The notes under the pieces are model-generated. The model worked only from the letters and a program-made list of their open reading frames with translations, did no database searches and was not told where the DNA came from. A program made the translations under genes and the position numbers. A stretch of DNA of 64,000 nucleotides from Sialis fuliginosa (lineage: Eukaryota > Arthropoda > Insecta > Megaloptera > Sialidae), in contig OY540810.1 in NCBI GenBank assembly GCA_961205875.1, forward strand, positions 13,020,001-13,084,000. The letters are read 5' to 3'. Below are positions 4,832 to 63,880 of the stretch, in pieces (position 1 is the first letter of the stretch; the number at the start of each line of letters is the position of its first letter).

Positions 4832-7800
4832 TCTACTATATATAACGAAGTGCCCTGACTGACTGATAATCATTTTTTTGACCATTTCCACTCATCGGAG
4901 AAACTTGAAATTTGGTATATACATTCCTTGGGGGTAAAAAATAACAACTAGTGGGCCTTTTTTGAAAAAGTTTATAAATGGGGTAACAAGGGGCCCCCAA
5001 TTTTTCAAAAAAAAAGTTAGAATTTTTTTATTATTTTTTTTATATTCCTTGGGCGATATAATGTAAGGTTCAAATTTCAGATTTAAAAAAAATGAAAAAA
5101 AAAGGAAAAAAAAAGTTTTGATGTAAAAAAGTATCAAAACGAAAACCGATATTAGATTTTTTTAATTTTTTTTAAATACTTTGGTTAATTGGCAACCATG
5201 AACCCGTGTCTGATTTTTGAAAAAGATATGTTAAAGAGGAGAAAATAAACAAAATACGTTTACATATAATGCGCTTTAAGCATTTACTAAATTAATTGCA
5301 AATGTCGTAACTATGGATACATTATATTTTATTGATTATTTTTAAAAATTTTAAATGTCAGTGGCCATTTAAAATTTTGAAGTGAACAATAAAATATAAC
5401 AAAAAAGAAATATAAAGAGCATAACGAACGAAAAAATATGCACAACTCTAATGTAATAAATAATTTAAATTTTCATAAATAAATTTGACAAAAAAATTGA
5501 AGACACAATTACAGCATTCGGACACAATTCGACCAACATTCGGCGATAGATATGTGTTCCCGGTACAAATAAAAATTAAGTATATAATGACATTTTTTTA
5601 ATCTTAAGTCATTGAATTATCAATATTTTTACTTTCATAGGTATAGGTATTTTATTATATTTATTTGTAATCATAAATATCAGAAGAAATTAACATTGTA
5701 ATTTTAAATGATATTATTTTAATTGTTGTTTGAAACTGTATATCTGTCATCTTTACCCAATGTACATTTACAAAATTAAAACAAGATGTTGATTTATTGC
5801 AAATTGTTACGAAAGCTTCATTCAATTGACAAGACCTATATTTGATTGTAATTAATTAATTAATTGTACAAAGGGTGTACGAGTATCTACAAGAGCTAAT
5901 AATGTATTTATATAGACACATTGATGAATTTTTGAAAGACACGAGCAGAAAAACCAAAAATGAAATTATTTTTAATATTCATAAAATGTTCAAATCATGT
6001 AAGTACATGATGTAATACAATACATGTACCAGAAGTCATAAAATAATTTTTTGTCGTTGTCATATCAGAAACAAATGTCATAATATGTATTTAGTATGCA
6101 ATATATTTTCATACGACAAGAGTTGAAAACGCATCGTAAACAAATATACAGGTAATCCTCGACTTATAATTGTCTTTGTCTCTTTCTTACATGCACATAT
6201 TACATAAATGAAACAAACAGTTCCGGGAATTTCCCAAAAATGTAATTTATTATTATTTATGTAGATATTTTTGGGAACCCGCAACTGTTTGTTATGTATA
6301 GAAAATGCGATTCGCTTCACATCAAGGAAAACGTCCAAAGCAAAAATATGTACATATTGTACGTGTTAACTTACAACTTATTCTATTTACGATCGATGTT
6401 TAGAAACCTATCTCGGTTGTAAGTCGAGGAATACCTGTACTACGATATATAACGTATGTCTTATCAGTTTAAGCGTAAAAAATATCAAAGTTAATATTCA
6501 ATGTTTTTAAATGCTGCGAGAAGTTCAAACATGCTTGACTGATTTAAATTTACTTTTTTCCTTATTTTATATATTACTTACAAAATAACCAAGACGTTCC
6601 ATTAAAATTTCAGGATTTGTGAAGTGTTCTGTCGTAGGAAAAGTTTAGGAAGCACTGTTCTACATCATACTTCAATATCAACCAAATTGAGTTATTGAGG
6701 GTAAAAAATATATTGAAAAAACCTCATAGAGAAACCATATTTAGTTTGTGCAATAAAGTTTTAACAGGTACGATTTTTCTAAAATATCTTAAAATTAATA
6801 AAATTAAAATTGATAAAAGCCCAGCTCTAATGAATAAATAAGAAAGCACTCCGTCACAGCACTATATTATTCCGTCGCGGGAAAGTACCTACCATATAGG
6901 CCAGTCAGGATCCACTCAGGGCTAGCTACGTCACTGGTTACGATACTATATTATTGTTGGTTACGATATTTCATAAAACAGATATCGGTGCTTAGAATAC
7001 ATTGTCTGGAGGAATACGATAAAAGTTTTAACAGATTTTTTAGCGGAAAAGAGAATTTTGTCGCTTATATATGAGATTTTTAGAATCGATAACTCAATTT
7101 CGCAAAAAGTGTATCTTACGATACTTTGCCTTGTAGGGGACGATATAGAAATAATTTAACCAGGTATGTTATAATTTAGGTATATAAAAACATAGTACCT
7201 AGCCATGGAATACGGAATTTTATAATTTACGGTTTCAATATTTTATTTTATTAATTTAGGTTACTATGATTATGTCTCTTTAAAATATTTTGTCGAACAA
7301 TTAAATGATTTTTGACACATATTAACAATTAAATATTTTGAAATGCCTATATTGATTGAAAATTTAAATATGAAGAAACATTTCACTTCTATGAAAGGTA
7401 AAATATCGAAATTAATTATTAGGTTTGGTGTAAATTTTTCGAAACACAATTTTTCGAATCACAATTTTTCAAATCAAAATTCTTCGAATGAACAATTTTT
7501 CGAAAAATTTAAGTTTTATTGTTCAAATTTTAATTAGTTAATAAAATATTAAGTAAAGTAATATTTGGACATTTTACGATATCCATACTAATATTATAAA
7601 TGCGAAAGTGTGTTTGTCTGTCTGTTTTCTGTTTGTTACCTTTTCACGGCTAAACCGCTTTACCGATTTTGATTAAATTTGGCAGTGAGATAGCTTGCAT
7701 CCCGAGGACGGACATAGGCTATTTCGTATCTTAAAAATTCAACCCCTAAGAAATTGCAAGGGGGTGGAAATTTTTTATTTTTTTTTAGTAATTATTATTT

Positions 7801-8535: not shown

Positions 8536-11500
8536 TCTACTATATATAACGAAGTGCCCTGACTGACTGATAATCATTTTTTTGACCATTTCCACTCATC
8601 GGAGAAACTTGAAATTTGGTATATACATTCCTTGGGGGTAAAAAATAACAACTAGTGGGCCTTTTTTGAAAAAGTTTATAAATGGGGTAACAAGGGGCCC
8701 CCAATTTTTCAAAAAAAAAGTTAGAATTTTTTTATTATTTTTTTTATATTCCTTGGGCGATATAATGTAAGGTTCAAATTTCAGATTTAAAAAAAAAGAA
8801 AAAAAAAGGAAAAAAAAAGTTTTGATGTAAAAAAGTATCAAAACGAAAACCGATATTAGATTTTTTTAATTTTTTTCAAATACTTTGGTTAATTGACAAC
8901 CATAAACCCGTGTCTGATTTTTGAAAAAGATATGTTAAAGAGGAGAAAATAAACAAAATACGTTTACATATAATGCGCTTTAAGCATTTACTAAATTAAT
9001 TGCAAATGTCGTAACTATGGATACATTATATTTTATTGATTATTTTAAAAAAATTTAAATGTCAGTGGCCATTTAAAATTTTGAAGTGAACAATAAAATA
9101 TAACAAAAAAGAAATATAAAGAACATAACGAATGAAAAAATATGCACAACTCTAATGTAATATATAATTAAAATTTTCATAAATAAATTTGACAAAAAAA
9201 TTGAAGACAAACAATTACAGCATTCGGACACAATTCGACCAACATTCGGCGATAGATATGTGTTCCCGGTACAAATAAAAATTAAGTATATAATGACATT
9301 TTTTTAATCTTAAGTCATTGAATTATCAATATTTTTACTTTCATAGGTATAGGTATTTTATTATATTTATTTGTAATCATAAATATCAGAAGAATTTATA
9401 TAATTTCAAATTAACATTGTAATTTTAAATGATATTATTTTAATTGTTGTTTGAAACTGTATATCTGTCATCTTTTTACCCAATGTACTAATCTAAAATG
9501 TACATTTACAAAATTAAAACAAGATGTTGATTTATTGCAAATTGTTACGAAAGCTTCATTCAATTGACAAGACCTATATTTGATTGTAATTAATTAATTA
9601 ATTGTACAAAGGGTGTACGAGTATCTACAAGAGCTAATAATGTATTTATATAGACACATTGATGAATTTTTGAAAGACACGAGCAGAAAAACCAAAAATG
9701 AAATTATTTTTAATATTCATAAAATGTTCAAATCATGTAAGTACATGATGTAATACAATACATGTACCAGAAGTCATAAAATAATTTTTTGTCGTTGTCA
9801 TATCAGAAACAAATGTCATAATATGTATTTAGTATGCAATATATTTTCATACGACAAGAGTTGAAAACGCATCGTAAACAAATATACAGGTAATCCTCGA
9901 CTTATAATTGTCTTTGTCTCTTTCTTACATGCACATATTACATAAATGAAACAAACAGTTCCGGGAATTTCCCAAAAATGTAATTTATTATTATTTATGT
10001 AGATATTTTTGGGAACCCGCAACTGTTTGTTATGTATAGAAAATGCGATTCGCTTCACATCAAGGAAAACGTCCAAAGCAAAAATATGTACATATTGTAC
10101 GTGTTAACTTACAACTTATTCTATTTACGATCGATGTTTAGAAACCTATCTCGGTTGTAAGTCGAGGAATACCTGTACTACGATATATAACGTATGTCTT
10201 ATCAGTTTAAGCGTAAAAAATATCAAAGTTAATATTCAATGTTTTTAAATGCTGCGAGAAGTTCAAACATGCTTGACTGATTTAAATTTACTTTTTTCCT
10301 TATTTTATATATTACTTACAAAATAACCAAGACGTTCCATTAAAATTTCAGGATTTGTGAAGTGTTCTGTCGTAGGAAAAGTTTAGGAAGCACTGTTCTA
10401 CATCATACTTCAATATCAACCAAATTGAGTTATTGAGGGTAAAAAATATATTGAAAAAACCTCATAGAGAAACCATATTTAGTTTGTGCAATAAAGTTTT
10501 AACAGGTACGATTTTTCTAAAATATCTTAAAATTAATAAAATTAAAATTTATAAAAACCCAGCTCTAATGAATAAATAAGAAAGCACTCCGTCACAGCAC
10601 TATATTATTCCGTCGCGGGAAAGTACCTACCATATAGGCCAGTCAGGATCCACTCAGGGCTAGCTACGTCACTGGTTACGATACTATATTATTGTTGGTT
10701 ACGATATTTCATAAAACAGATATCGGTGCTTAGAATACATTGTCTGGAGGAATACGATAAAAGTTTTAACAGATTTTTTAGCGGAAAAGAGAATTTTGTC
10801 GCTTATATATGAGATTTTTAGAATCGATAACTCAATTTCGCAAAAAGTGTATCTTACGATACTTTGCCTTGGAGGGGACGATATAGAAATAATTTAACCA
10901 GGTATGTTATAATTTAGGTATATAAAAACATAGTACCTAGCCATGGAATACGGAATTTTATAATTTACGGTTTCAATATTTTATTTTATTAATTTAGGTT
11001 ACTATGATTATGTCTCTTTAAAATATTTTGTCGAACAATTAAATGATTTTTGACACATATTAACAATTAAATATTTTGAAATGCCTATATTGATTGAAAA
11101 TTTAAATATGAAGAAACATTTCACTTCTATGAAAGGTAAAATATCGAAATTAATTATTAGGTTTGGTGTAAATTTTTCGAAACACAATTTTTCGAATCAC
11201 AATTTTTCAAATCAAAATTCTTCGAATGAACAATTTTTCGAAAAATTTAAGTTTTATTGTTCAAATTTTAATTAGTTAATAAAATATTAAGTAAAGTAAT
11301 ATTTGGACATTTTACGATATCCATACTAATATTATAAATGCGAAAGTGTGTTTGTCTGTCTGTTTTCTGTTTGTTACCTTTTCACGGCTAAACCGCTTTA
11401 CCGATTTTGATTAAATTTGGCAGTGAGATAGCTTGCATCCCGAGGACGGACATAGGCTATTTCGTATCTTAAAAATTCAACCCCTAAGAAATTTCAAGGG

Positions 11501-24100: not shown

Positions 24101-27100
24101 AACTTCTTCTTTCTGTTTAATTAAAATAATTATGTATTTAGCAACATAGAACTCTGGAACTATTCATAACACAAACTTTGATATCACTTTTAAAATGTTT
24201 GTTATCATATAGTTTCTTAAACTAAAAATATAGCACAATAAAACAATATCACTCGACACGTGTTTCGACTTCACAAGAAGTCCTCATCAGTCCCAGACTG
24301 AATCATATAGTTTAGTTTTACGAATTCAAATTTGAAATCATTTTGACAAATAAGGTACTGGCACCAGTCTTGATCGCTTTAAGATCAAGGTATACTGTTT
24401 TTTTTAAATTCTCATGAGCTCATGTTACTAATAAAACTAGTACCTCTTAAAAATTATATAATTTCTTATAAAATATAGACTTTTATTTTTATTTTAAGTT
24501 TTTCTCCAGTGATGGATAAAGTAAAACCAGTAATGGACGCCCAGTGATAAAGATTACAAAATGATAAGTTTAAAGTACTAGGATACAAAAGTTATAAACC
24601 AATGAATGGTAAAATTGTAAGCAATGTATTGCAGATGCTATGATAATATAATAATTAATAAATAGATTACAATAACAATTAGTTTAAATGTTCACCATTT
24701 TGACACCCATTGGCCGATTATCTTCAAAATTTTAGAATTAGGTGTCTATAGACTATGATTCAGTAATGGCAGTATGTAATCAAATATCAACAAATATTTG
24801 TAATTTAGTATATTTAATTAAACAAGTGGGGTACTGTCCAAGACTGGTGCCAGTAACTAATTTTTAATAATTACTGTCCTTTAAGAAAAATGCATCAAAA
24901 ACAATTATAATTTGGCATCAAATATTACAATTTTACATTTTTTTTAGGGTAGATACTTTTTAATATTTTTATTATTAAATAATTTTGTATTTTGAACAAC
25001 AAATTCTGCATAAATATGATTTTTAACTTTCTTTTTTTAATTTCGTTCTACGTATTTGATTTTTTACAATATGTAAATGCATTTTTTCAAAAATTTCCAG
25101 ACCCCCTCTGCATGGGCTTGCTCCTATGGGTACACCGGTAACATTTAACTCTCATTAAGTGTACATGGGGATTTTAACTTTGGTAAACACTGAACTAGAG
25201 AATAACCATTTTGGATTCTGAAATATTGAAAATAACTTCAAGACAATTACCTTTTTTGTTTTTTAATGACAGTCCATACGCAGCGGTGGTTACTGCCATC
25301 TTTTCATCGTTATCGCTATCACCGTCATCGTCATCTGAATAGAACAATCTGAACCCTCTTCGTGCTGCAGCTTGAACACTGTGAGTCCAAGGTGGAGTGA
25401 TGTTAAACGTGTACCTTAACCAAAAAACATCGTTTATGTTAATTACCACAAACTAAATGTATCTACCTTAGACAAAGAAATAGGACTAATAACACTTTAC
25501 CAAGCGTTGTTACCATATCGCTTTACAAAAAATCGATTCACGAGTCATTGGCGTATCATTAAGTTGAATTATAAAATTAATTAATAATAAATGTTTTATA
25601 TTGTCTTTAAAAATATTTCAGTGATAATTGATTAACAGAGAAACGTCTATTTGGAACTATCATCTCTCATACATACTAAATTCAATTGTAATTTAAAGAA
25701 TATTTGCATATTATACATTTTCAACTGACGCCTCTGGGATAATATGCATGGAAATGACGAAAGTGACATTTAAGAAAAAATGATCGCCGTAAAATGTTGG
25801 TAACAGTTTCGAATATGGACTAGTATTTGTTGTTATGTATCCATAGTCTTTTCTAATCTAATGCAGTGTTTACACCAAAGAAAACAAAACAGCAACACGG
25901 TGTTTGAAAACACGTCGTATTTAAAAATGCATAGGCTTTATTGCACTTTTGTCAAAAAGACACGATGTTGCTGTTTTGTTTTTTCGGTCTGAACACGGCA
26001 TAAGGTATACTTTACTAAATCCAAGAAAAATGTCAAACTAATATTTTTTAGTAAAATTGTATAAAAATTAAATGGTTAATAAATTGTTCAATAATTAACT
26101 ACCTTTGGTGAATTTAGCACGAGGGAACATTTTACATATATGTAGGTACAGTTTTTTTTCTCTGCGACCTAAATGTTTAATTTTGTCTTTTCTATTACAG
26201 TAGCGCCGAAACCAATTATATTTTTTGGGGGGCTGGCAGTATGAACTCCAACAATTAAAAAATATTGTTACTTTTCAATAGAATTAAATCAATAAAATTG
26301 GAAAATTAGAAAAACACAAAGAAAATTAGTTTATTTTCGTGAATTTTCAGAAACATTTTTTATGCGATTTTCGGCCTATTTAAATTGATTGATGCGATTT
26401 TAGAAAATTATGGAACGTATCCCTAATTTTACAATGTATGCAAAGTATTTTTTACAAACTGTTTTCTGTGGAACGTATCTACCACGTAAAAAGAGACCCT
26501 GCTGTATTTTCTTTAAAAATCATATTAATTTACCTGTCACGTAATTCGGCCAATTCCGTACCGCACGACTGCGCTGATACGACGTTGCGAAGTAAAGTAT
26601 CCGCATTCCACGACTCCTGCATATCCCGAGTTAACACACCCATAACTGAATAAAACTCATCTGCACTCGACACCTGAAGGATTCGGCTGAAATAATCAAC
26701 CCACAAACATGTTTAAACTAACTGGTATTATTTAGAAGGCTTATCAAATACAAATCCGCTAACCATAAAAATTGTAAGAGTTTAGACTTACACGCACGTG
26801 TTTCAATAGCAATGCTATCATCATCAGAATCCTAAAGACACTAACTTAAATCTAAATAACTACGACTATATATATATACCTTAGAAACTACTGATCCAGA
26901 ACTTATCCTGGAAAAGTAAACGTTTACCGTTCCAGGATAAGTTCTGGTTCAGTAGTTTCTAAGGTATATACATAAATAGTCGTACTTTAATAAATTATTA
27001 AATTAATGACTCAGACCAATACGGTCAACGTTTACCGTTCCAGGATAAGTTCTGGTTCAGTAGTTTCTAAGGTATATAAATAGTCGTAGTTATTTAGATT

Positions 27101-30100
27101 TAAGTTAGTGTCTTTAGGACTCTGATGATGATAGCATTGCTATTGAAACACGTTGTAAGTCTAAAATCTTATGGTTAGGGGATTTGTATTTGATAAGTCT
27201 TAACCATAGTTTTTGTCTGTTGTTTGTTATTAGAGGGCTTATTAATCGGCATTATTATATAATTGTACTCACTCTGCGAGTCCGTCCCAGATGGCTAAAG
27301 TTGTTCTTAACAATACTTCGTTTCCCTCGAGAAAGATCAAATCCCACACTCTGAGTACAGCATCCTGAGGTAAACAGTTGCAGAACAATGTCAGGAACCA
27401 CTGCATCGTGAACACGTTGGTCAAGGGAGGCTCGTATGATGTACCTATTATTTAACAAAGAGCTTACATCAACTACTAACAATAAACCAAGTTTAAAATT
27501 TCATGTTTGTAAGTCTCACCGTTTTCACTGTAGAGCGTTCACACACATACACACACAGACAGACACACACAGAGGAGACCCTTAAAACGTGTAATCCGTT
27601 AAAATATCGAGTTAGATTTTTTTCATTATCACTATGCTTTATTATACAGTATATTTCTTATATGTATAAAAAATAAAAACAGAGCTGGAATTGTCTACAC
27701 TTAAACCATTAGATAGGTCTCTTAAAATGCAACCAATAATATCTAAGAACATTTCAATTTAAACCCTTCAGTCAAAAGTTATTTGCTTTCAAATTCGTTA
27801 TCAGAGTGTCCAGTCTGTATAGCTTTTAATTAGTACTCTTAATAAAAAACTATAACGAAGAATGTAGCAATTATTTGGACCCCCTCCCATAGACTGAAAA
27901 GTATACTTTTTTTTGCACATTGAGTGGATTGTCTTTAAATAGGTTAATGTTTTAGAACCTTTTAATTATAACCCTTTAGTCACGAGATATTTACTTTCAT
28001 ATTCGTTATCAGAGTACCCCCCCCCCCCCTCTAAAAAATATTAATGCAAAAAATCTGAAAAAAATTCAGAATGTAGATTTTAACTAGTACTTTTTTATAG
28101 AGAATGTTAGTGAGAATGGCTACAGAACCCTATCATGTGCTTGGCCGTTTTTTTTTTCGTATTCTACGTAAAAAAAAAGAAATAATTATTAATTATTACA
28201 ATACCTTCGTGTGCTTCAGTTTGCAATGCCTCCAAATGTCTTGAGAGAAGTGGTAGCCTCAATTTCAACAGGTCTCTAAAAACAGCCATATCAACGGACA
28301 AGCCCCGGAGATTATTTGCGAAGTATGATTCAGGCAACACACCCTCGATTAAATAAATCATCACCTGTACAAAAATAGTGAAATTAGAACGAATATTCAC
28401 TCGTCAAAATAATTAAGGGATTAAAATATTGCTGGGGAAAAAGGCAATATTTCACATACAGTGGAATTTTGTTAGTACGTTTTTGAAGAGACTGAGGGGA
28501 AAATACATCCGTAATAACGAAATATTTTAACATGGAGTCTTATAGAAGAATGCCGGAACCCGTAAGAATGTATTATGGCGAAAAACTTACTAAAGCAAAA
28601 CGTACTAACGAGGTTCCACTGTATATAAATAAGAATGTACTGGAAAAATGGATAAACTGTGGTTTCTTAGTCACTTAAACAGTCTGGAACTGTTAAGGAC
28701 TAATTTTTTTCAGGGATCGTTTACAAATTTTTCAATAACTTTGCAAAAAATAATTAAAATAACTTTATTTATTTAGATGATTTTTAGTGGGATCGACAAC
28801 AATTTTCACTGATAAGATGGTGGCCCTTATGCGAGCCATGAAATGATTATTTAGCGTCGCCATATTGGTGACATTCAAAATCTAAATGGTTAAAATTACA
28901 TTTTATTGGTTTTATTTTTATCAAAGTAAGTTGTCTTTGAAAACATTTTTTTATGTAGAACTGAATAGCGCTTCTAGAATTTTTATATTACATAGTTTAA
29001 ATTTACTTGTACCTGAGAAAATTCCAAAATAAAAGAAAATATGAAATAGAGAAAAAGTATTTGAAAAAATTAACTTGTTTTAAATACAGTAATCTCTCGA
29101 TTTACGTGGATTCACTTTTACGTGGTTGAAAAAGTTAAGAAAAAAAGGCGAAATATAATAATAACCTAACCAAACATTTTTTAGTCTAAACATTTTTTTC
29201 AAATATGCAATTGTTTTGAGATTAAAAAAACTGTAACACTTTAAATGTCCCACCGTGTATAGATTTAATAAACTCACCTTAACAGCTTCTACCTCATTGC
29301 GGTCCATAACCTGTAGAATAAGCGCGGCAAGCATGTTAAAACCTTGGCAATACCCAACGGCCTTATTCCACCTCGCATAAGCTAGTAAGACTCTCTTTAG
29401 AAGTACTTGATTTTCCTGCCCAGCTGTACCACAGAACAGACTACAACCTGTACGGTGCAAGTCCTGAAAAACAATTTTAAATTAACCACAATTTTTTAAA
29501 ATTAATATAATTATTTTTTTATAAGATGTTAATGGCATATAAACAGCAGTGGGAGGGATTTTTAACGACGTCACATATTGAGTTAATGCATGAACCATTA
29601 AAATCAGTTGAATGATAAACTTCGTAAAAGTGAGTTCAGAACTTCCTATGTAGGAAATGCCAGCCTTGACGATGGGCCCAAGCTTGGCCCAATATTGGGT
29701 TGCCAAATGTTGCTTTTTAAAAATTGGTTCCAGTCTAGGCCAACTTTCAAAACTCTGGGCCAACCTTGGTACAAAAAGCCTTGGCCGAGTCTTAAACGAA
29801 GTATCATTTGTATCTTAGCCCAGTCTTGGATAGCATTGGCGCAAGCCTGGGCCAAACGCGACCCCTTTTGTAATTTCCTACATGGGTTATTTGATACGTA
29901 CCTTAACAATCTGCACACCAAGCTCGTTATCGTCAGGATTGGAACACTCATTGAAACAGGCTACCTCGGCCTTCGACCACTCGATGCCGCTATGTTGAAG
30001 ATGTCTTTCGGCCAACGTTATCCATAACTGCATAAATACAAAATATAATATGTATATTAAATGTAAATGTGGAATTTACATTGGCCTATACTGCCGTGTT

Positions 30101-39165: not shown

Positions 39166-39235
39166 ATCTTTAATTATTTTGTTACACAAAAACATTTGAA
39201 TATTTATACAATGGACATAAAATGTTGCTGTAAAC

Positions 39236-40083
39236 TTACAAGAGGAAGCAACAGCACGGTTAATGAAAATTTCAATGAGCTTGTGGTATGTCAAACTAGA
39301 GCAAAAATAAAAAGACACGTGTCCAACAATTTGATCTCATAGGCCTTAATTACAAAGATAATTAACTTTGATAATTTATGTATTCAATATAACCGTGTAT
39401 TATGTTCGCTCGAAATATAAGTGTGTTGGCCCTACGGTCAACGCGCTGGCGTCTCGCCTGGTTTTAAGATTTTGATTTTAATTTTAATTTACAATTATTT
39501 TTTATTTTTTTGTACACATTACCTCTCCCACTTGCGTAAAAATCGATAAATTAGACATAAATAAAACATATATTATTATTGACAATGAAAATATTATATA
39601 TACGCCAGTACATAATTATTAATTTGTTTTAAAGTAAATTTAATTTATTATTGACACAACTCATTAGTTTTTAATTAATAAATTGAAAAGTTTTAATAAA
39701 AAACAAACTTGAAAGAAACCACAAACATCTATTGTCAATAATAATATATGTTTTATTTATGTCTAATTTATCGATTTTTACGCAAGTGGGAGAGGTAATG
39801 TGTACAAAAAAATAAAAAATAATTGTAAATAAAAATTAAAATCAAAATCTTAAAACCAGGCGAGACGCCAGCGCGTTGACCGTAGGGCCAACACACTTAT
39901 ATTTCTAACGAACATAATACACGGTTATATTGAATACATAAATTTTCAAAGTTAATTATCTTTGTAATTAAGGCCTATGAGATCAAATTGTTGGACACGT
40001 GTCTTTTTATTTTTGCTCTAGTTTGACATACCACAAGCTCATTGAAATTCTCATTAACCGTGCTGTTGCTTCCCCTTGTCGGT
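39236..40083. repeat. Large palindrome with about 345-bp arms
   Basis: Arms 39236-39582 and 39733-40083 are inverted, nearly identical copies around a spacer of about 150 bases. Each arm holds gaagcaacagcacggttaat, caacaatttgatctcatagg, a GC-rich block ggccctacggtcaacgcgct and acctctcccacttgcgtaaa. The GC-rich block looks like the D-arm half of a tRNA or tRNA-derived SINE (tggccctacggtcaacgcg), but no B box follows. No coding frame is supported. Confidence 0.9.
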
Positions 40084-40099
40084 CTAACAAAAATAAAGA

Positions 40100-61820: not shown

Positions 61821-63880
61821 AGTCCAGTAAAGGAAGCATTTTGACAGGAAATTAAGAGGGCAAGCAATTTTATCATTGATTCTTATAGATTTTGAACCGG
61901 AGAATTCGAAAAAAATAACCCGGACTAGCAAAAAGTGGTGCAACACCCTTAAAAATGGGGTTTAAGGGTGAAAACCCCATTTCCAACCGTTTTTTCAATT
62001 TATCACAAAATCTAAAGCGATGATGGTATATTTTTATGGTTGATATATGTTCAGGACACTTAGACGAATCGATTGTGACCACATATACTAAATTTGGCCA
62101 AAAATTATCTCTTCCAGAGGGCTTAAAAGACTTAAAAATGCATCTTTTCGGGGAAAATAGTTTAAAAATTAATAACTTTTGTTAAAATCATCCAAATGAC
62201 TCGAAACTAGGCTCAAATTGTTCCTGAAGTTCCAAAGAATAATAATGAACCATAATTTAAAAAATATTAATAGTTTAACCAATAAAAATCGCTAATGTTT
62301 AAGGGTAAGTAACGTAAATTTTTGAAAAACTATCTTTTTACTAAAATTTAAATAAAAACATCAGGGTTGAATATTTTTTAGTGAAACCAAGGTAGATACC
62401 TTCCATTTGTACATACAAACAAAATGAGACTCCCCAAAATAATATTCAATTATTAGAACGGGTGCAAGTGCGCTTAGAAATACACTGAATTTTTTGTTGT
62501 ATACAATTAAAAAAATTTCATTTTTCCAAACAAAATAATAGATTCAGTCCAGTAAAGGAAGCATTTTGACAGGAAATTAAGAGGGAAAGCAATTTTATGA
62601 TTGATTCTTATAGATTTTGAACCGGAGAATTCGAAAAAAATAACCCGGACTAGCGAAAAGTGGTGCAACACCCTTAAAAATGGGGTTTAAGGGTGAAAAC
62701 CCCATTTCCAACCGTTTTTTCATTTTATCACAAAATCTGAAGCAACGATGGTATATTTTTATGATTGATATATGTTTAGGACACTTAGACGAATCGATTG
62801 TGACCACATATACTAAATTTGGCCAAAAATTACCTCTTCCAATGGGCTTAAAAGACGTAAAAATGCACATACCCTTAAACATTAGCGATTTTCATTGGTT
62901 AAACTACTAATATTTTTTTAAATTATGGTTGGTCATTATTCTTTGGAACTTCAGGAATAATTTGAGCCTTGTTACGAGTCATTTGGATGATTTTAACAAA
63001 AGTTATTAATTTTTAAACTATTTTCCCCGAAAAGTAGCATTTTTACGTCTTTTAAGCCCTTTGAAAGACGTAATTTTTGGCCAAATTTAGTATATGTGGT
63101 CACAATTGATTCGTCTAAGTGTTCTGAACATATATCAATCATAAAAATATACCATCGTTGCTTTAGATTTTGTGATAATTTGTAAAAACGGTTGGAAATG
63201 GGCTTTACACCTTTAAACCCCATTTTAAGGGTGTTGCACCACTTTTCGCTAGTCCGGGTTATTTTTTTCGAATTATCCGGTTCAAAATCTATAAGAATAA
63301 ATTCGTTTCACTAAAAAATATTTAACCCTGGTGTTTTTATTTTAATTTTAGTAAAAATGTAGTTTTTCAAAAAATTACGTTACTTACCCTTAAACATTAA
63401 CGATTTTTATTGGTTAAACAATAAATATATTTTTAAATTATAGTTGGTCATTATTCTTTGGAACTTCAGGAACAATTTGACGCTAATTACGAGTCATTTG
63501 GATGATTTTAACAAATGTTATTAATTTTTAAACTATTTTCCCGAAAAGATGCATTTTTTTGTCTTTTAAGCCCTCTGGAAGAGATAATTTTTGGTCAAAT
63601 TTAGTATATGTGGTCACAATCGATTCGTCTGAGTGTCCTGAACATATATCAACCATAAAAATATACCATCGTCGCTTTAAATTTTGTGATAAATTGAAAA
63701 AACTGTTGGAAATGGGGTTTTCACCCTTAAACCCCATTTTAAGGGTGTTGCACCACTTTTCGCTTGTCCGGGTTATTTTTTTCGAATTCTCCGGTTCAAA
63801 ATCTATAAGAATCAATCATAAAATTGCTTGCCCTCTAAATTTCCCTTTTTCTCACTTTTCACTGCTTCCTTGACTGGGCT
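61821..63880. repeat. Four-copy (+,+,-,-) repeat cluster
   Basis: A unit beginning agtccagtaaaggaagcatt and containing attttgaaccggagaattcg, ggtgcaacacccttaaaaat and cgaatcgattgtgaccacat occurs in sense at 61821-62390 and 62546-62880. It occurs in antisense at about 62880-63297 and 63300-63880, where it ends tgcttccttgactgggct. Copies differ by substitutions and truncations. Short frames on both strands are the same repeated non-coding sequence. The outer unit also carries aaccaataaaaatcgctaat. The last 120 bases (63881-64000) are AT-rich. Confidence 0.8.

What the first reader, a model, noticed from the sequence alone, without database searches (positions are those of the whole stretch)
26740..27197. 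Foldback element with a hammerhead-ribozyme motif in each arm
Both arms carry CUGAUGA, a hairpin, GAAA, a short stem III and UA, and the flanks pair as stem I, in opposite orientations. The left-arm motif lies in the sense of the TBC1D30 intron it occupies. Hammerheads are known from Penelope-like elements and small retrozymes, but here no coding part is left, and a third partial inner arm shows rearrangement. One extra base after CUGAUGA could lower activity.
Basis: partly seen in the sequence, partly recalled or inferred. Interest (0 to 1): 0.8.

Follow-up and report, generated by a model that had tools for sequence, protein, structure and literature searches.

The report
Penelope retroelement fragment with paired hammerheads
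A short, dead copy of a known kind of jumping gene (a Penelope-like retroelement) sits in an intron and carries two facing copies of a self-cutting RNA motif; its relatives in the same genome show where that motif lies in the element's RNA and hint at how such mirror-image copies are made.

Summary
The foldback is a truncated Penelope-like element (PLE): inverted pseudo-LTR (pLTR), partial inner arm, direct pLTR with tail, about 26745-27229, flanked by a 13-bp target-site duplication (12/13 identical), inside a 586-nt intron of a TBC1D30-type gene. Relatives in the same genome encode reverse transcriptase plus GIY-YIG between pLTRs. The hammerhead is real by homology: 493 genomic matches carry its core, and three other PLE families have it beside their ORFs with different but still paired stems I and II. 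The extra base after CUGAUGA occurs in all four families read, so it is not a defect of this copy. Against this: Rfam scores stay below threshold, the hammerhead fold is not the energy minimum, and cleavage is untested. Here each hammerhead lies 3' of its own complement in either transcript, so it is probably sequestered and inert. Beyond the finding: in two families copies tend to begin at the A of a TATA-initiator promoter 15-20 nt before the ribozyme core, placing it at the RNA's 5' end, and 126 of 160 arms came from uncleaved templates. Arm ends favour two-sided target-primed reverse transcription over snap-back. PLE hammerheads, inverted pLTRs and tails are published: a new member of a known kind.

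The parts
26732..26744 (.). left target-site duplication TTAGAAGGCTTAT
   Evidence: 12 of 13 identical to 27230-27242 (sequence); 67 of 95 complete relatives share flank words of 9 nt or more against 2.6% for mismatched flanks
26745..26930 (-). inverted pLTR arm (family reference positions 510-327), lacking the tail
   Evidence: blastn to the L141 tandem junction, 89.5%
26781..26836 (-). left-arm hammerhead motif, gene-sense; H17 at 26789, predicted cut between 26789 and 26788
26916..26984 (+). partial inner arm (reference 330-394) that starts at the palindrome GTAAACGTTTAC shared with the inverted arm
26995..27229 (+). direct pLTR arm with tail (reference 301 to about 545)
   Evidence: 91-92%; the blastn match runs to 27230-27240 by chance similarity in the TSD
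27073..27079 (+). TATATAA of the pLTR promoter (a relic in this copy)
   Evidence: sequence; position relative to the 5'-end peak of relatives
27107..27107 (+). predicted transcription start (A of TTAGTG), equal to reference position 412
   Evidence: 36 of 160 arm 5' ends fall exactly there and 76 of 160 within 408-416
27113..27166 (+). right-arm hammerhead motif, antisense to the gene; H17 at 27157, predicted cut between 27157 and 27158
27197..27229 (+). tail (between the two inferred reverse-transcription start sites)
   Evidence: arms of relatives end near reference 509 (inverted) or 545 (direct)
27230..27242 (.). right target-site duplication TTAGAGGGCTTAT
   Evidence: as above
26687..27272 (-). 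host intron of the TBC1D30-type gene (586 nt, of which about 485 are the element)
   Evidence: splice sites and frames, RabGAP-TBC

Best explanation
The foldback is a short, non-coding, 5'-truncated insertion of a Penelope-like retroelement. Its two arms are two copies of the pLTR of one family, and the pLTR carries the PLE-type minimal type I hammerhead between its TATA-initiator promoter and the ORF. The family's protein (RT plus GIY-YIG) made the insertion from an RNA that had not been cut at the hammerhead. The inverted arm was probably copied from a second reverse-transcription start site primed on the other target strand, giving head-to-head arms and a target-site duplication. Shown: homology to coding PLEs, inverted pLTR, tail, TSD, conserved hammerhead with compensated stems. 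Inferred: the start site, two-sided priming, and that this copy's ribozymes are inert because each is sequestered by the upstream complementary arm.
For: Own genome: 99 matches at 40 scored places of 1081 first-look candidates. Relatives pair as inverted arms around an ORF; L141 holds an 815-codon stop-to-stop frame between two direct pLTRs plus a further inverted pLTR, with RVT_1 (E=2.5e-13) and GIY-YIG (E=1.8e-4, 0.4 bits under the cut-off). 493 exact matches to the hammerhead pattern against 0 for the reversed pattern. Three other PLE families (30-54% protein identity) carry the motif in 12 of 18 ORF-flanking stretches fetched, with stems I and II changed on both sides and still paired; RF00163 itself aligns to the 54% family at that place, 17.7 bits. 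TSD-like words in 67 of 95 copies. Architecture equals Adineta Pen2a: inverted pLTR 37 bp shorter, 31-bp tail, TSD (PMC3846280, passages).
Against: No Rfam hammerhead match for this family: none at the gathering score in the window, none up to E=10 in three stretches, 0 in the genome search (only 73 of 31351 candidates scored and its controls were silent too); the sister family's 17.7 bits is below the gathering score of 34. My intended positive control gave no hammerhead hit either. The hammerhead fold is not the minimum: -5.2 against -8.2 (right), -6.6 against -12.7 (left), -5.6 against -12.3 for L141 and -8.2 against -18.7 and -19.7 for the sister family. 6 of the 18 flanking stretches lack the motif. 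The window's arms have a palindrome at the inverted junction, which also fits self-priming.
Confidence: 0.93

Rival explanations
1. A DNA transposon (MITE or Foldback type) that happens to contain a hammerhead-like motif.
For: Long near-palindromic arms without coding part; many dispersed short copies.
Against: Longer copies encode RT and GIY-YIG between the arms; arms differ in length by the 36-nt tail; TSD length varies from 9 to 17 nt in the copies that show one; 5' ends peak at a promoter start. No transposase was seen, but I searched only the ORFs of the PLE copies for domains.
Confidence: 0.02
2. The hammerhead resemblance is a coincidence fixed by shared ancestry of the copies, with no ribozyme history.
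For: Below Rfam threshold; not the minimum-energy fold; one family's copies are not independent.
Against: Chance rate 9e-5 per window; the motif recurs in three further PLE families with both sides of stems I and II changed and pairing kept, and PLEs are known carriers of minimal type I hammerheads (PMC7761336, passages).
Confidence: 0.04
3. The mirror-image copies arise by snap-back self-priming of one cDNA rather than by two separate reverse transcriptions.
For: Proposed in print for PLEs from palindromes at inverted junctions (PMC3846280, passages); the window copy has such a palindrome (26916-26930).
Against: Inverted arms end at reference 504-517 in 61 of 64 foldbacks and never at 540 or beyond; in 26 of 64 the inverted arm reaches more than 5 nt further 5' than the direct arm it would have been copied from; inner ends are uncorrelated (Spearman 0.017, p=0.89). 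The sample was chosen for a tail on the direct arm.
Confidence: 0.3
4. A retrozyme: a small circular-RNA retroelement mobilised by PLEs.
For: Size near 170-400 nt and a type I hammerhead; a 176-bp x 4 tandem array with the sister family's hammerhead exists in this genome.
Against: The window copy is a pLTR fragment with inverted arms, not a tandem of hammerhead-bounded monomers; its outer ends are RT start sites, not ribozyme cut sites.
Confidence: 0.03

Closest known systems
Penelope/Poseidon PLEs with inverted pLTRs and tail (Adineta vaga Pen2a, PMC3846280; Anolis PAc, PMC11167929)
   Same: RT plus GIY-YIG ORF, pLTRs in partial tandem, shorter inverted pLTR, optional tail of about 30-40 nt, TSD, hammerhead in the pLTR, two RT start sites that bound the tail.
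   Different: The window copy has lost all coding sequence. In PAc the ORF start lies inside the hammerhead and the cut is 26 bp after the start codon; here the core lies 121 nt before the ATG and 15 nt after the inferred transcription start.
Minimal PLE hammerheads (Cervera and de la Pena 2014; Lunse, Weinberg and Breaker 2017; both seen only as cited in PMC7761336)
   Same: Type I layout with a very short stem III (AC/GU), in PLE pLTRs.
   Different: One unpaired base between A9 and helix II in all four families read here; whether the cited papers list that variant I could not see. A core insertion in a viroid hammerhead is known by title only (De la Pena and Flores 2001, in the reference list of PMC4918200).
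Metazoan retrozymes (PMC7229834)
   Same: Small, non-coding, type I hammerhead, found alongside PLEs.
   Different: No tandem monomers and no ribozyme-defined ends at this locus.
Rfam RF00163 Hammerhead_1
   Same: Core CUGANGA, GAA, three helices; aligns to the sister family.
   Different: 17.7 bits against a gathering score of 34 for the sister family; no match for the window's family.

Membership tests
Penelope-like element | ORF with RT and GIY-YIG endonuclease in the family | tested here: met
   L141 ORF: RVT_1 E=2.5e-13, GIY-YIG E=1.8e-4 just under the cut-off. Not in the window copy itself.
Penelope-like element | pLTRs in tandem or partial tandem, with inverted pLTR | tested here: met
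   L141: two direct pLTRs 2587 nt apart (core to core) and one inverted; window: inverted plus direct.
Penelope-like element | target-site duplication | tested here: met
   Window 12/13; 67 of 95 relatives share 9 nt or more.
Penelope-like element | optional tail on one of the inverted pLTRs | tested here: met
   0 of 64 inverted arms carry it, while the direct arms were selected for it.
Type I hammerhead ribozyme | conserved core CUGANGA...GAA...UH with stems I, II, III | tested here: met
   one extra base after A9; stem III of 2 bp in the family.
Type I hammerhead ribozyme | compensatory changes that keep the stems | tested here: met
   Four families, stems I and II; one mismatch inside stem II of two families and one unpaired stem I position in one family. 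Not shown between the two window arms.
Type I hammerhead ribozyme | self-cleavage at the predicted bond | not testable with these tools
   No bench assay.
Rfam RF00163 Hammerhead_1 | curated gathering score (a search threshold, not a chemical trait) | tested here: not met
   sister family 17.7 of 34 bits.
Metazoan retrozyme | tandem hammerhead-bounded monomers giving circular RNA | tested here: not met
   Window copy is a single inverted pair with RT-start ends; circular RNA not testable.
DNA transposon (MITE/Foldback) | identical terminal inverted repeats, fixed-length TSD, transposase in autonomous copies | tested here: not met
   Arms differ by the tail, TSD 9-17 nt where present, autonomous relatives encode RT/GIY-YIG.

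The most novel reading that the evidence does not exclude
In at least two PLE families of this genome the hammerhead begins 15-20 nt after the transcription start, so its cut would remove the cap-proximal leader. The many short foldback copies are then 'strong-stop' products: uncleaved leader RNA copied from the two RT start sites, one on each cut target strand, to the RNA's 5' end, and joined head to head. The genome would thus record that insertion runs on uncleaved RNA and that the ribozyme acts outside, or after, the templating step.
Probability: 0.5. Interest if true: 0.55.

Novelty: new member of a known kind. Interest (0 to 1): 0.4.

Why it matters
The role of hammerheads in PLEs is called unknown in the review read (PMC7761336, passages). 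A genome with hundreds of short, datable copies lets one read template 5' ends directly: here they peak at a promoter start upstream of the ribozyme and show no significant pile-up at the cut site. The paired arms also offer a genomic test of the two RT start sites reported in vitro for PAc (PMC11167929).

Tried and rejected
Rfam at gathering and at E up to 10 found no hammerhead in the window; the miRNA and sRNA names that appear there are all below their gathering scores and reflect the long hairpin. A TSD scan that assumed symmetric arms found no convincing TSD; the TSD became visible only once the tail was known. Exact patterns in viral contigs and prokaryote contigs gave no relatives: 0 and 0 for the hammerhead, 7 chance 18-mers for the arm tip, 2 loose matches not followed up, no phage match. 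IMG/VR loci with a canonical-looking hammerhead string (7 of the loci) were meant as a positive control but none reached an Rfam hammerhead threshold, so that control is uninformative. The MAFFT alignment of the four families' motifs misplaced two of them; the stems were instead read from each locus by fixed motifs. A pile-up of 5' ends at the cut site was tested: 5 of 42 truncated direct arms at 461-464 (p=0.04), but 6 of 67 over both arms (p=0.08) and not the best window by chance (p=0.91 and 0.45), so I do not claim it.

Not answered: searches for a canonical hammerhead string and for foldback spacing in the genome met a busy machine and were not repeated. Papers not held: PMC4209133, PMC5785218, PMC5850863.
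Full report
What is there. Between exons of a gene with a RabGAP-TBC domain lies a 586-nt minus-strand intron, 26687-27272. About 485 nt of it are a foldback: an inverted arm to 26930, a partial inner arm 26916-26984 and a direct arm 26995-27229. The ends are flanked by TTAGAAGGCTTAT and TTAGAGGGCTTAT, 12 of 13 identical. Both arms hold CUGAUGA-U-GAUAGC-AUU-GCUAUU-GAA, a short stem III, UA and a stem I partner, facing outward.

Not chance. With one tolerated inserted base and stems at least as long as those seen, random order-3 sequence gives 10 hits in 14 Gb, 9e-5 per window. The descriptor was fitted to the motif, so this is a lower bound on the chance rate; the genomic evidence below carries the weight.

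What it is. The element finds 99 matches at 40 scored places of 1081 candidates. Of 20 places fetched, several hold the arms as inverted pairs 0.4-3.3 kb apart, and the longer ones encode a protein between them. L141 has an 815-codon open frame between two direct pLTRs, cores 2587 nt apart, then a 5'-truncated second unit and an inverted piece of ORF plus pLTR. The ORF matches RVT_1 (E=2.5e-13) and GIY-YIG (E=1.8e-4, 0.4 bits below the cut-off). This is the anatomy of Penelope-like elements, including the shorter inverted pLTR and the tail (PMC3846280, passages). The window copy is an older, private insertion: its arms are 89-92% like L141.

The hammerhead. A core pattern has 493 exact matches in the genome and 0 when reversed; the first 100 were listed, and among these I counted by eye 15 close pairs, all minus then plus, none plus then minus within 400 nt. 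In 36 aligned arms, the 34 not deleted at the core all carry the extra U; 28 of the 34 keep CUGAUGA, five have CCGAUGA and one CUCAUGA (counted by eye). Relatives found by protein at 30-54% identity were sampled by 18 short ORF-flanking stretches: 12 hold a hammerhead-like core and 6 do not. Three further families result. Their stem I pairs are GCUC/GAGU, GAC/GUC and GUAC/GUAC against GACU/AGUC here; stem II is different in each; two families have one mismatch inside stem II; all have one unpaired base after CUGANGA. RF00163 aligns to the 54% family at this place with 17.7 bits, gathering score 34. So the motif has a ribozyme history, in a variant that Rfam scores poorly.

Activity. The hammerhead fold is not the minimum-energy fold in any of the five sequences tested. 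For the Anolis PLE the hammerhead was reported to cleave only with protein present (PMC11167929, main text parts 1 and 2 of 4 read), and PLE motifs may act as dimers (PMC7761336, passages). In the window copy, a transcript of either strand makes the complement first and the hammerhead second, and the element folds into one hairpin of -281 kcal/mol, z -35. I expect no cleavage of the host intron at this site.

How such copies arise. Using an exact tail string that does not ask for the ribozyme, 308 copies were found; I fetched the first 100 listed. Five run off the fetched stretch; of the other 95, 65 have an inverted arm and 30 do not; 67 share a flank word of 9 nt or more, against 2.6% for mismatched flanks. 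Of 160 arm 5' ends, 36 are exactly at reference 412 and 76 within 408-416; 34 lie at 461 or beyond, so 126 of 160 arms keep sequence 5' of the predicted cut (after 461). Position 412 is the A of TTAGTG, 33 nt after the first base of TATATAAA (counted by eye). In the sister family, 8 of 18 fetched copies begin within 2 nt of the A of TCAGT, again about 31 nt after a TATA string, although the distance to the core is 20 nt and not 15 (this sample was chosen by its ribozyme). A promoter start explains both; an RT stop at the ribozyme does not explain the different spacing. A pile-up at the cut site is not significant over both arms (6 of 67, p=0.08; direct arms alone 5 of 42, p=0.04).

Two-sided priming. 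In 64 foldbacks with one inverted arm, that arm ends at 504-517 in 61 and never reaches 540, while the direct arm (selected for its tail) ends near 545; the inverted arm reaches further 5' by more than 5 nt in 26, the direct arm in 16, and 22 agree within 5; the inner ends are uncorrelated. A cDNA that folds back on the direct arm could not yield the 26. The published in vitro system cuts and extends both target strands and starts at two sites that bound the tail (PMC11167929). I therefore favour two reverse transcriptions per insertion. Against this, the window copy has a palindrome at its inverted junction, as self-priming predicts (PMC3846280), so both routes may operate.

Literature. Searches found no paper that, by title, abstract start or the passages I read, maps a PLE hammerhead to the capped 5' end; the original PLE hammerhead papers are not held, so I make no claim that it is unpublished.

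Noticed in passing
24216-24301 (-), TSDs 24204-24215 and 24302-24313: A second PLE-type hammerhead insert in the same gene, gene-sense, 86 nt, starting at TCAGTCTGG of the sister family and flanked by a perfect 12-bp TSD AAACTATATGAT; its stem I partner is lost.
   Followed up: partly
L305:260-966 (G000 C1 about 39236160-39236866): Four head-to-tail 176-bp units, 99% alike, each with the sister family's hammerhead and a foreign segment: a retrozyme-like array.
   Followed up: partly
39231-40086 and 61947-63745: Other long inverted repeats in the window (356-nt arms 97% complementary; a nest of 118-318-nt arms).
   Followed up: no
genome-wide, sister family: 723 exact copies of the sister family's hammerhead 3' half, more than for the window's family.
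   Followed up: partly
L137, L141: Inverted 5' parts can include hundreds of bases of the ORF's 3' end, not only the pLTR.
   Followed up: no
window 6078-6365 and 9816-10103 (-): Two identical 95-codon frames about 3.7 kb apart, suggesting a recent duplication.
   Followed up: no
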